Position numbers and translations under genes: made by a program. From IMG/VR virus record IMGVR_UViG_3300003876_000004, positions 1 through 39,726 of that record: a stretch of 39,726 bases of DNA; one strand, given 5' to 3'. Positions within the stretch are counted from its first letter, which is position 1, and each line of letters opens with the position of its first letter. The stretch comes from a virus. This document shows positions 390 to 10,138 of this stretch, one piece after another. A model generated the notes under the pieces. The model saw only the letters and a list, made by a program, of their open reading frames with translations. It made no database searches and was not told where the DNA came from.

Positions 390-433
390 GCACTAACTAA
401 CCAGGCCAGGGACGGCCTAACAATGAGGATAAT

Positions 434-7434: not shown

Positions 7435-8140
7435 TACTAGACAAGCACTTGATTCTGTAAAGATGACAGTATATGGCCCATCTGGAGTTGGCAAAACAAC
7501 ATTATGTGCAACAGCACCAAAGCCAGTAATAATTTCCGCTGAGAAAGGCCTGCTTTCATTGGCTGATGAAGATATACCAGTGATTGAAGTTGTGAATAAT
7601 ACTGAATTTGAAGAAGCATATGACATGTTGATGGGGGGTGAAGGTAAGAATTTTGATACAATATGTATCGACTCAATTTCTGAATTAGCATCTAAAATGA
7701 TTGGTGAATATACAAGCAAATACGCTGATGGAAGAAAAGCATATGGCAAACTAAATGATGAATTTCTAAAACTACTTTGGAAATTTCGAGACATATCTCG
7801 TAAACATGTATTGTTTATTGCTAAGCAGAATCGAATAACTGATGACCATACAGGTATTACAACTTATGGGCCATCATTACCTGGAAAAACATTGATAAGG
7901 GAAATGCCATATCTTACTGATGAAGTATTCTGTCTTAGAATTGGAACTATGCAAGTTGATGGTGTAAATGAGGAGTATCGGTATTTACAGACTCAGCCTA
8001 CAATAACTCATGATGCCAAAGACAGAAGCGGACAATTGAAAGATGTTGAACGTCCTGATCTTGGAATAATCATTAAGAAAATAATGGGAAAGGCGAAACC
8101 CAAAACAGTAGCCAAAGCAAAAGAGGTAACTAAAAAATGA
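7415..8140 (+). CDS. Sak4-like RecA-fold ATPase
   Basis: 241 residues from ATG 7415, with AGAGG 6 bases upstream (an upstream frame lies inside the previous gene). Sak4-type proteins are single-domain RecA-like ATPases that phages use for strand annealing or exchange with a phage SSB. Walker A GPSGVGKTT is at residues 21-29, Walker B DTICIDSIS at about 81-89, and KQNRI with a GPSLPGK loop follows. The basic C-terminal tail (KAKPKTVAKAKEVTKK) could bind DNA. It overlaps by ATGA with an SSB-like gene and is followed by a Cas4-like nuclease and helicase, the usual neighbourhood. Confidence 0.85.
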   Translation: MPVKITNTRQALDSVKMTVYGPSGVGKTTLCATAPKPVIISAEKGLLSLADEDIPVIEVVNNTEFEEAYDMLMGGEGKNFDTICIDSISELASKMIGEYTSKYADGRKAYGKLNDEFLKLLWKFRDISRKHVLFIAKQNRITDDHTGITTYGPSLPGKTLIREMPYLTDEVFCLRIGTMQVDGVNEEYRYLQTQPTITHDAKDRSGQLKDVERPDLGIIIKKIMGKAKPKTVAKAKEVTKK

Positions 8141-8628
8141 GTACGTTATTACCAACAGTGTTTCATGCACATGAACACGAAACAATGGATGATTTCAGTG
8201 CAATCCCTGTAGCTGATGAAAAAGGTGTATTGATTGATTTCATTGGCCAAATTATAAAGTCAGAAGTAGTAAAAACAAAAGCTGCTATTACTGACAACTC
8301 AAATTGTGGTCGTCGGTTGAATATGCAAATTAAGATTCTTGAAGGTGATCATGTTGATCGCATTATTTTCATTGGGCTTAATGTAGCGAATCCAAATCCT
8401 GTTGCTGTTGAAATTTCAATGAAGGAATTGCGTTCAATTTCTGATGCTTGCGGTGTAGCTGAAGTGGTTGATTCACAACAGCTTCATATGATTCCTTTTG
8501 GGTTCAATATGAAATTGATTCCTGCTTCTGATCAGTTTCCTGAAAAGAATGAAATCAAAAAGTATTGGGCATTAGAAGGTACAGGTGTCGCAGCTTCAGC
8601 TGACCCATTTGGTGAAGATGAAGATTGA
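8137..8628 (+). CDS. SSB-like protein (DUF669-like)
   Basis: 163 residues, coupled to the ATPase gene by ATGA. The central beta-rich region (GRRLNMQIKILEGDHVDRIIFIGLNVANPNP) matches the OB-fold-like DUF669 proteins that accompany Sak4 ATPases. The C-terminus is an acidic tail, DPFGEDED, similar in kind to the partner-binding tail of SSB proteins. Expected role: coat single-stranded DNA and recruit the ATPase or polymerase. A hairpin and a structured RNA follow before the next gene. Confidence 0.75.
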   Translation: MSTLLPTVFHAHEHETMDDFSAIPVADEKGVLIDFIGQIIKSEVVKTKAAITDNSNCGRRLNMQIKILEGDHVDRIIFIGLNVANPNPVAVEISMKELRSISDACGVAEVVDSQQLHMIPFGFNMKLIPASDQFPEKNEIKKYWALEGTGVAASADPFGEDED

Positions 8629-8636
8629 TTGTTGTT

Positions 8637-8652
8637 GGCACAGGGATGTGCC
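8637..8652 (+). terminator. Short hairpin after SSB-like gene
   Basis: GGCACA (8637-8642) and TGTGCC (8647-8652) form a perfect 6-bp stem with a GGGA loop, followed by TATTTATT. It could be a weak terminator, mRNA 3' stabiliser or the first element of the adjacent regulatory RNA. Confidence 0.4.
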
Positions 8653-8653
8653 T

Positions 8654-8752
8654 ATTTATTAAAGGGGATTGGCATTCCTATCTGCAAATAAGTTTCCGTA
8701 GATTGGGCTTATTTGTTGGTCAATCCCCTCCAATAAATTAACAAAGGGGTTG
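8654..8752 (+). promoter_or_regulatory. Riboswitch-like structured leader with alternative SD pairing
   Basis: Three stacked stems are visible: ATTTATT/AATAAAT (8654-8660 with 8732-8738), AGGGGATTG/CAATCCCCT (8663-8671 with 8721-8729) and CAAATAAG/CTTATTTG (8685-8692 with 8708-8715), with a 15-base apical loop. CCTATCT (8677-8683) in the internal loop can pair 6 of 7 with AGATTGG (8700-8706) in the apical loop, a possible pseudoknot. CAATCCCCT can instead pair with AGGGGTTG (8745-8752), which contains the Shine-Dalgarno sequence of the 8756 gene. This gives ON and OFF states. I cannot match it to a named riboswitch class. Confidence 0.55.
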
Positions 8753-8755
8753 TAA

Positions 8756-8956
8756 ATGGGGACTGAGAGCTATAAAGAAATAAATGACTCACTATCATTG
8801 TGCAATCACACTGATGATGATGGTGAAATTGAGTTTAACGTAAGCACGCAACGTTATGAACAATTAAATTTTAGTTACTATATTGATCGTGATGAATCAG
8901 TTGATGTAATACAACATTTGATGTCAATTTATAATATACACAAGGATGAATTATGA
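8756..8956 (+). CDS. Hypothetical acidic protein, 66 residues
   Basis: Start at ATG 8756, 6 bases after AAAGGGG (8743-8749), whose access may be controlled by the structured leader. Strongly acidic (CNHTDDDGEIEF, DRDESVDV) with a short C-terminal helix. No known motif. It ends in an ATGA overlap with the next gene, so the leader may control the following genes through coupling. Confidence 0.7.
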   Translation: MGTESYKEINDSLSLCNHTDDDGEIEFNVSTQRYEQLNFSYYIDRDESVDVIQHLMSIYNIHKDEL

Positions 8957-9258
8957 GTAATTATGTAATACAAAGAGTGCACCGTAATCCTGATGAAGAA
9001 GGGAATCCTATTCGTGAAGTGCTAGCAGCTGGATATGCTAACAAAGATAATGCTGCTAAGGCAATATTGAATATGCTTGATGATGGAGTTGGATATAAAT
9101 TACTTGACCACTCTGGGAATAAACGACGAAGATTGGTTGTTGATAGCCTTGATTTGTTCTATGAGATAACTGAAATAGCAAATTTGATGCTTGTTGATAA
9201 TGAACCTTGGGATTTACCAATACAGGAGGCTAATCATGGCTCTAATACCAAAGGGTGA
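8953..9258 (+). CDS. Hypothetical protein, 101 residues
   Basis: ATG 8953 overlaps the previous stop. It starts with a beta-strand (YVIQRVHRNPDEEGN) and then has the pattern AGYANKDNAAKAILNMLDDG, similar to small phage proteins that reformat a 'value plus counter' fold, but I cannot name the family. A basic KRRRL patch sits in the middle. Its 3' end overlaps the Cas4-like gene start by 23 bases. Confidence 0.7.
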   Translation: MSNYVIQRVHRNPDEEGNPIREVLAAGYANKDNAAKAILNMLDDGVGYKLLDHSGNKRRRLVVDSLDLFYEITEIANLMLVDNEPWDLPIQEANHGSNTKG

Positions 9259-10138
9259 TCCAATTAAAGAAGCTATGGAGTATGGCATTATTGAAGTATT
9301 GCCAAGGCCATATCTTGGATATTCTGGATTGGCTAGTCCTTGTAAACGATACTTGTGGTTAAGCTTTCGCTGGTGCTATAAGAAACAAATAAGCAAGCAA
9401 TTGCAAAGAATATTTGATCGTGGTAATATGGAAGAGCCACGCATAATCAAAGATTTGAAAGCAATTGGTTGTGAAGTATTTCGTGAAGATGAAAATGGAA
9501 AGCATATTGAGATATATGGCCATGAAGGTGAAATACAAGAAGAAATAGTTGGCTTAGCTGGTCATGTGAAAGGTCATTTTGATGGGAAAGTGCTTGGTTT
9601 GCCAGGAGCAGCAAAAACAAAGCATATACTTGAAGCAAAAACAATGAATGATAAGTATTTCAAAATGCTTATTAAAAATGGTGGCAATGAAACAGCTATA
9701 AAAAAAGTATTCCCTACATATTATGGACAATTTAATTCATACATGGGTAAGTCAAATGTAAAGCGCGCAATATTCATACCTGTAAATAAGAACAATGAAG
9801 AGCGTTTGTATATAAGAGTTCATTTTGATGAAAGAGAATTTGATCATCTTGAGAATATCGCGTTTGATATTCTTACTGCTAACATACCACCAAAGCGGAT
9901 AGGTGATAGAACTTGGTTTGAATGTAAATTCTGTGATGCTCGCCATGTATGTCATGATAAGGATGTTCCTCCGCTGGAGACCTGCAGAAGTTGTATAAAA
10001 GCATGTATTGAAGATGAAGGTAAATGGACTTGTGAATTGAATGGCAAAGAGTTAAGTCTGGAAGACCAGGAAAAAGGTTGTTTGAAACACAATGTAATTG
10101 TTGAAATAAAAGATATGTTGATGAATAAAAATGGGTGA
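9236..10138 (+). CDS. Cas4-like PD-(D/E)XK nuclease with Fe-S type cysteines
   Basis: 300 residues from ATG 9236, with AGGAGG just upstream (the longer frame from 9191 lies in the previous gene). Nuclease motifs are visible: RGNMEEP (Glu near 66), GHFDGKV (Asp116) and ILEAK (Glu133, Lys135), the D...ExK core. A Cys in SPCKRYLW (36) and the C-terminal CKFCDARHVC (230, 233, 239) match the four-Cys pattern that holds a 4Fe-4S cluster in Cas4/AddB-type nucleases. A further CRSC follows. Such enzymes resect DNA ends and work with phage annealing ATPases. No cas1 or CRISPR array is present, so this is a recombination nuclease. Confidence 0.85.
   Translation: MALIPKGDPIKEAMEYGIIEVLPRPYLGYSGLASPCKRYLWLSFRWCYKKQISKQLQRIFDRGNMEEPRIIKDLKAIGCEVFREDENGKHIEIYGHEGEIQEEIVGLAGHVKGHFDGKVLGLPGAAKTKHILEAKTMNDKYFKMLIKNGGNETAIKKVFPTYYGQFNSYMGKSNVKRAIFIPVNKNNEERLYIRVHFDEREFDHLENIAFDILTANIPPKRIGDRTWFECKFCDARHVCHDKDVPPLETCRSCIKACIEDEGKWTCELNGKELSLEDQEKGCLKHNVIVEIKDMLMNKNG

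What the first reader, a model, noticed from the sequence alone, without database searches (positions are those of the whole stretch)
8654..8755. Riboswitch-like leader that can hide the Shine-Dalgarno sequence of the next gene
Seen directly: 24 base pairs in three stacked stems (7, 9 and 8 bp), a possible pseudoknot between 8677-8683 and 8700-8706, and a 3' strand (8721-8729) that pairs perfectly with 8663-8671 or, with one bulge, with AGGGGTTG at 8745-8752 that includes the ribosome site. The aptamer-side strand AGGGGATTG mimics that ribosome site. This is the logic of a translational switch. The following genes are two small coupled proteins and the recombination nuclease. I cannot match the fold to a known class, so it may be a new one or may sense a metabolite, protein or phage RNA.
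Basis: partly seen in the sequence, partly recalled or inferred. Interest (0 to 1): 0.8.

Follow-up and report, generated by a model that had tools for sequence, protein, structure and literature searches.

The report
Phage CsrA-like hairpin plus folded spacer
The RNA fold in front of this phage gene is real and conserved in relatives, but it is probably not a riboswitch: it sits behind a small hairpin that matches the docking site of the bacterial regulator protein CsrA, and many related phages carry that hairpin between genes.

Summary
The stems at 8654-8738 exist as described and are conserved. In the only close relative found (L083, ~70% DNA identity), 22 of 23 pairs of the local structure are kept, six through changes on both sides. 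A covariance model then finds the same arrangement after the ssb gene in two more phages (L085, L169). The Shine-Dalgarno-hiding helix is not conserved (4 of 8 pairs kept), costs about 8 kcal/mol in the window, and the proposed pseudoknot has no counterpart. Nothing matches Rfam.

It is the high-affinity CsrA/RsmE consensus: an ANGGAN hexaloop on a C-G-closed stem. Related phages repeat a module: stop codon, 6-16 nt, C(ANGGAN)G hairpin, next Shine-Dalgarno. The loop is strand-specific (23 versus 1), the stem-loop-stop association is strong (Fisher 1e-12), and loop GGA to Shine-Dalgarno GGA is typically 15-22 nt, inside the CsrA bridging range. Two phages with such hairpins encode CsrA. The described fold starts at the hairpin base and ends 5-7 nt before the Shine-Dalgarno, so it may be a folded spacer. 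CsrA binding is inferred; the host is unknown and p66's Shine-Dalgarno lacks GGA.

The parts
8137..8628 (+). single-stranded DNA binding protein gene (ssb); its stop codon precedes the element
   Evidence: PHROG 6015, E 5.5e-24
8637..8652 (+). h1: hairpin GGCAC-AGGGAT-GTGCC, hexaloop ANGGAN closed by C-G; proposed CsrA/RsmA-family binding site
   Evidence: consensus in PMC4005645 and PMC7652899; stem pairs 8638-8651 and 8640-8649 compensated in L083; recurrence and enrichment
8642..8647 (+). h1 hexaloop AGGGAT with GGA at 8644-8646
   Evidence: sequence
8653..8660 (+). U-rich tail of h1 (weak intrinsic-terminator look), whose 8654-8660 is also the 5' strand of P1
   Evidence: terminator scan
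   Evidence: fold and shuffles; covariation with L083 and L085; covariance-model hits
8745..8749 (+). Shine-Dalgarno AGGGG of the next gene; partly to mostly unpaired in the default fold; contains no GGA
   Evidence: sequence
8756..8956 (+). p66, 66-aa protein without known relatives; absent at this position in L083
8953..9258 (+). p101, protein conserved in L083, where it directly follows h1+h2
9236..10138 (+). Cas4-domain exonuclease of the recombination operon
   Evidence: PHROG 1990, E 3e-69
403..418 (+). second C(ANGGAN)G hairpin in the window, AGGCC-AGGGAC-GGCCT, between the stop at 389 and a GGA-containing Shine-Dalgarno (GGA-to-GGA 17 nt)

Best explanation
The gap between ssb and the downstream recombination genes is a protein-controlled translational leader, not a riboswitch. 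Step 1 (shown): a short hairpin (h1) with an ANGGAN loop follows the ssb stop codon. Step 2 (inferred): h1 is the high-affinity site of a CsrA/RsmA-family dimer, from the host or from another phage. Step 3 (inferred): the dimer's second pocket reaches a GGA at or near the next Shine-Dalgarno and blocks the ribosome, so the following genes (p66, p101, Cas4 nuclease) are repressed until CsrA is titrated away. Folded, it keeps h1 and the start site close although about 87 nt lie between them. It may also be an RNase III site or an mRNA stabiliser.
For: (1) h1's 10-mer ACAGGGAUGU fits the last 10 positions (ACARGGAUGU) of the SELEX consensus RUACARGGAUGU and the ANGGAX-hexaloop-on-a-stem rule. (2) ssb-adjacent copies in L083 and L085 keep C-A-R-GGA-U-G while the stem letters covary. 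(3) In related phage loci C(ANGGAN)G hairpins are 23 on the coding strand versus 1 for the reverse complement and 2.9 on average for permuted loops; 13 versus 8 in contigs that are mostly of Planctomycetota. (4) CANGGANG 6-30 nt after a stop is flanked by complementary arms in 15 of 25 cases versus 16 of 377 elsewhere (Fisher 1e-12); eight control motifs give 1 of 64 near stops. (5) Loop-GGA to next-GGA distances are mostly 15-22 nt in short modules, inside the reported bridging range of 10-63 nt, optimum above 18. (6) 2 of 14 motif-bearing phages encode CsrA above the Pfam cut-off, 0 of 50 other related phages; one of the two has its hairpin in this intergenic position. (7) h2 is conserved and abuts h1 in each case found.
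Against: The Shine-Dalgarno of p66 is AAAGGGG, without GGA; the nearest GGA is at 8760-8762, in codons 2-3. The host is unknown, and neither the window nor L083 encodes CsrA. In the window, L083, L085 and L169 a U-rich run follows h1, so it could be an intrinsic terminator whose loop happens to fit. Most related phages have ordinary terminator hairpins or none after ssb. h1 stems of 5-6 bp are longer than most SELEX ligands. In phage G012 the ssb-near hairpin lies inside a coding frame, so only one CsrA-encoding phage clearly has the module. CsrA binding was not tested.
Confidence: 0.5

Rival explanations
1. h1 is a weak intrinsic terminator that lowers transcription past ssb, and h2 is an RNA-processing (RNase III) or stability hairpin that separates the ssb message from the recombination-gene message.
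For: h1 plus TATTTATT is called terminator-like; L083, L085 and L169 have U runs after h1; other relatives have conventional terminators at the same place; h2 is a long, mostly paired stem, and in L085 a continuous hairpin.
Against: Many C(ANGGAN)G hairpins in the same position have no U run (L116, L119, L128, L137, window 403-418), and the loop constraint is not explained by termination. The U run pairs with an A run in h2, which is pointless for a terminator.
Confidence: 0.27
2. Ligand- or protein-responsive riboswitch-like leader: opening of P2 frees 8721-8729 to pair with the Shine-Dalgarno 8745-8752 and shuts off p66 translation.
For: The complementarity exists: 9 bp in P2, and an 8-bp helix with one bulge to the Shine-Dalgarno.
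Against: The SD-paired state is 7.8 kcal/mol worse; the helix is not kept in L083 (4 of 8 pairs); no conserved loop core; no Rfam match; P2 forms before the Shine-Dalgarno is transcribed.
Confidence: 0.06
3. h1 is the operator of a phage-encoded translational repressor other than CsrA (for example the SSB itself).
For: The position directly after ssb, conserved in several phages.
Against: The same hairpin follows other genes (window 403-418; several intergenic sites in L143 and L146) and its consensus is that of CsrA.
Confidence: 0.1
4. The phage hairpins act as a sponge: abundant mRNAs with high-affinity sites titrate host CsrA, rather than regulating the genes in cis.
For: Several sites per genome in some phages (L143, L146), nearly always on the transcribed strand.
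Against: Only two strong sites in the window; tight spacing to the next Shine-Dalgarno suggests a role in cis.
Confidence: 0.07

Closest known systems
CsrA/RsmA-repressed mRNA leaders (E. coli glgC, Pseudomonas hcnA)
   Same: High-affinity GGA hexaloop hairpin upstream, second lower-affinity site at or near the Shine-Dalgarno, spacing compatible with one dimer bridging both (PMC7652899, PMC4005645)
   Different: Here the hairpin is intercistronic, right behind a stop codon in a phage operon; in the finding's own leader a folded ~87-nt hairpin is inserted and the Shine-Dalgarno itself has no GGA
Csr/Rsm sponge RNAs (CsrB, RsmZ) and TwoAYGGAY (RF01731)
   Same: GGA-loop hairpins of the ANGGAN type on short stems
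   Different: Sponge RNAs carry several hairpins in one non-coding RNA; here single hairpins sit between genes; no Rfam match
Phage-borne csrA genes (PMC7366521)
   Same: Shows that phages carry Csr components; two relatives here carry csrA
   Different: That survey, as far as I read it, concerns the protein gene and not binding sites in phage mRNAs
Translational riboswitches with Shine-Dalgarno sequestration
   Same: Structured leader with a possible alternative pairing to the Shine-Dalgarno
   Different: Alternative pairing not conserved, no aptamer core, no family match

Membership tests
CsrA/RsmA-controlled leader | ANGGAX hexaloop directly on a stem (high-affinity site) | tested here: met
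   8637-8652; consensus from PMC4005645
CsrA/RsmA-controlled leader | high-affinity site conserved in homologous leaders | tested here: met
   L083 and L085 at the same place with covarying stems
CsrA/RsmA-controlled leader | second GGA overlapping the Shine-Dalgarno within bridging distance | tested here: inconclusive
   met at window 403-418 and in most relatives; in the finding's leader the Shine-Dalgarno is AAAGGGG and the nearest GGA is at 8760-8762
CsrA/RsmA-controlled leader | CsrA present in the infected cell | tested here: inconclusive
   no csrA in the window or L083, csrA in 2 of 14 motif phages; host unknown
CsrA/RsmA-controlled leader | CsrA binds and represses | not testable with these tools
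   needs gel shift and reporter assays
riboswitch | match to a known class | tested here: not met
riboswitch | conserved ligand-binding core | tested here: not met
   the inner region differs in length and letters between window and L083 and is nearly absent in L085
riboswitch | conserved expression platform (SD-hiding alternative) | tested here: not met
intrinsic terminator | GC-rich hairpin followed by a U run | tested here: met
   (1 found, 0.3 expected) for h1; several other C(ANGGAN)G hairpins in the group have no U run

The most novel reading that the evidence does not exclude
A group of related bacteriophages places CsrA-type hairpins between the stop codon of one gene and the Shine-Dalgarno of the next, building a phage-wide Csr regulon that times replication and recombination genes or drains host CsrA. 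Some of these modules have gained a co-varying hairpin insert that keeps the two binding sites at bridging distance.
Probability: 0.4. Interest if true: 0.72.

Novelty: new variant of a known kind. Interest (0 to 1): 0.55.

Why it matters
Csr/Rsm is a global switch of bacterial metabolism and lifestyle. csrA genes on phages have been counted, but in my limited literature search I found no report of CsrA sites built into phage operons. If this holds, these phages read (or drain) the host's metabolic state through post-stop hairpins. The prediction is sharp: GGA-loop mutations in a 130-nt reporter should relieve repression only in csrA+ cells. The folded spacer would also be a neat case of structure conserved to keep a distance.

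Tried and rejected
Rfam on the whole window and permissively on the leader, on L083 and on 370-460: nothing credible. DNA pattern of the P2 arms in IMG/VR: one chance hit in an unrelated contig. Closer relatives by SSB, p101, Cas4 and helicase probes: only L083 is near. SD-sequestering switch: energetics and conservation speak against it. Pseudoknot: no counterpart seen in L083. Plain GGA-in-loop hairpin scan with GU pairs was too loose; the strict C-G-closed hexaloop scan gave the signal. MAFFT on the longer stretches shifts the 3' arm by one column; the ungapped anchoring on stop and start codon and the shorter alignment agree with the fold of each sequence. ssb-downstream gaps of known-host phages (Escherichia, Klebsiella, Vibrio, Pseudomonas, Erwinia, Cronobacter) show ordinary terminators without the motif.

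Full report
WHAT WAS CHECKED. The window is an IMG/VR virus record of 39,726 bases. The same region within a wider 151-nt segment is unremarkable (z -1.3), so stability alone would not have been decisive.

CONSERVATION. No similar DNA was found among 50,697 phage records. A helicase probe found one close relative, L083 (contig IMGVR_UViG_3300032212_000062), about 70% identical in DNA over several operon segments. Its ssb gene is followed by the same arrangement. Anchoring the two sequences on the ssb stop codon and on the next start codon, without gaps, 22 of 23 pairs of the upstream hairpin h1, P1 and P2 are kept, six through changes on both sides and three through a change on one side; none of 100,000 shuffles reaches this. 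A separate MAFFT alignment of the shorter stretch gives the same counts (97.8% of cells paired, six double changes; 35-50% paired when the partners are slid). A covariance model from the two recovers L085 at 39 bits (E 5.6e-5) and L169 at 29.8 bits (E 0.005) in 1.0 Mb of phage sequence, both directly behind the ssb stop codon. With L085 added, 11 of 23 pairs show double changes (0 of 500 shuffles), with the caveat that this alignment was fitted to the structure. A three-sequence model finds nothing at E below 1 in 0.84 Mb of control contigs. P3 exists in L083 as a hairpin but with different letters and register; in L085 the whole is one continuous stem with a short loop.

WHY NOT A RIBOSWITCH. 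The alternative helix between 8721-8729 and the Shine-Dalgarno costs 7.8 kcal/mol relative to the default fold, in which most Shine-Dalgarno positions are largely unpaired; exact values depend on the segment folded. In L083 the same positions keep 4 of 8 pairs: P2's two strands changed together, while the Shine-Dalgarno went from AGGGG to AGGAG. The pseudoknot has a central mismatch and no visible counterpart in L083. The inner region has no shared core. Rfam has no match.

Eight bases after the ssb stop codon lies h1, 8637-8652, GGCAC-AGGGAT-GTGCC. Its loop and closing pairs fit the high-affinity Csr/Rsm site: an ANGGAX hexaloop directly on a stem (PMC4005645); SELEX consensus RUACARGGAUGU (PMC7652899). 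L083 has GCCTC-AAGGAT-GAGGC and L085 GGCGC-AAGGAT-GCGCC at the same place: the stem letters vary by compensation and C-A-R-GGA-U-G stays.

A RECURRING MODULE. In about 150 related viral loci, C-G-closed hexaloop hairpins with loop ANGGAN occur 23 times on the coding strand. The reverse-complement loop occurs once and permuted loops 2.9 times on average. In genome contigs mostly of Planctomycetota the contrast vanishes (13 versus 8). Without requiring a stem, CANGGANG at 6-30 nt behind a stop codon is flanked by at least three complementary base pairs in 15 of 25 cases, against 16 of 377 elsewhere (Fisher 1e-12); eight control motifs give 1 of 64 near stops. Most hairpins start 6-16 nt behind a stop codon and shortly before the next start. 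The loop GGA lies 15-22 nt before the next GGA, usually in the Shine-Dalgarno, in most of the short modules measured; CsrA dimers bridge sites 10 to 63 nt apart with an optimum above 18 nt (PMC7652899). The window has a second module at 403-418 with spacing 17. Some phages have several (L143, L146). Two of 14 motif-bearing phages encode CsrA above the Pfam cut-off, against 0 of 50 others (one search gives weaker NCBIfam matches for one). In one of these two (G012) the hairpin near ssb is inside a coding frame, although it has two others elsewhere. ORF calling here was mechanical, and loci are related, so the counts are not fully independent.

PUTTING THEM TOGETHER. In the window, L083 and L085 the long hairpin h2 begins 0-1 nt behind h1 and ends 5-7 nt before the Shine-Dalgarno. 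With h2 folded, the distance from the loop GGA to the Shine-Dalgarno is about 17 nt in all three, as in the short modules; this is my arithmetic from the coordinates. I therefore read the element as a CsrA-type translational control module in which h2 is a folded spacer (inferred). Alternatives for h2 are an RNase III site or a stabiliser. The weak point is that the window's p66 Shine-Dalgarno carries GGGG rather than GGA. p66 is absent in L083, where the leader precedes p101 with AGGAG, so p66 may be a recent insertion (inference).

HOST. Unknown. Cronobacter phage Ss1 and Vibrio phage VA-RY-3 have annotated gene orders that resemble the window's (helicase, then a thymidylate synthase a few genes on), which suggests, but does not show, a gammaproteobacterial host, where CsrA is common (general knowledge).

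VERDICT. Observation confirmed. The mechanism is replaced by a better-supported one that still needs a binding experiment. Ordinary in kind (a Csr-type leader) if true, but unusual in its place and spread.

Noticed in passing
L260:1495-1683 (phage G006, the phage of L128) and G012:27514-27663: Phage-encoded CsrA homologues above the Pfam cut-off in two relatives; in G006 the gene overlaps the end of a DNA polymerase III alpha-like gene.
   Followed up: partly
window 8940-8949: The Shine-Dalgarno of p101 lies in ACAAGGATGA, which itself fits the CsrA core ACARGGAUG; whether it is unpaired was not tested.
   Followed up: no
window 8756-8956: p66, a 66-aa protein without any family match, sits between the leader and p101 but is absent from L083: a possible recent insertion.
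   Followed up: partly
L081:3476-3570, L103:2593-2760, L109:3722-3830, L134:3838-3960: Other complex folded elements sit between ssb and the next gene in more distant phages, several starting at the tail of a first hairpin; no shared sequence seen.
   Followed up: partly
L146:1660-1704: CAAGGATG hairpin followed by a short hairpin made from its U-rich tail (CTTTTC/GAAAAG), like a miniature of the window's element (E 0.23 with model R2).
   Followed up: no
L139:2760-2880, L148:3100-3240: tRNA-like sequence (GGTGGCGGAATAGGTAGACGC...) directly behind ssb; ARAGORN calls no tRNA there.
   Followed up: partly
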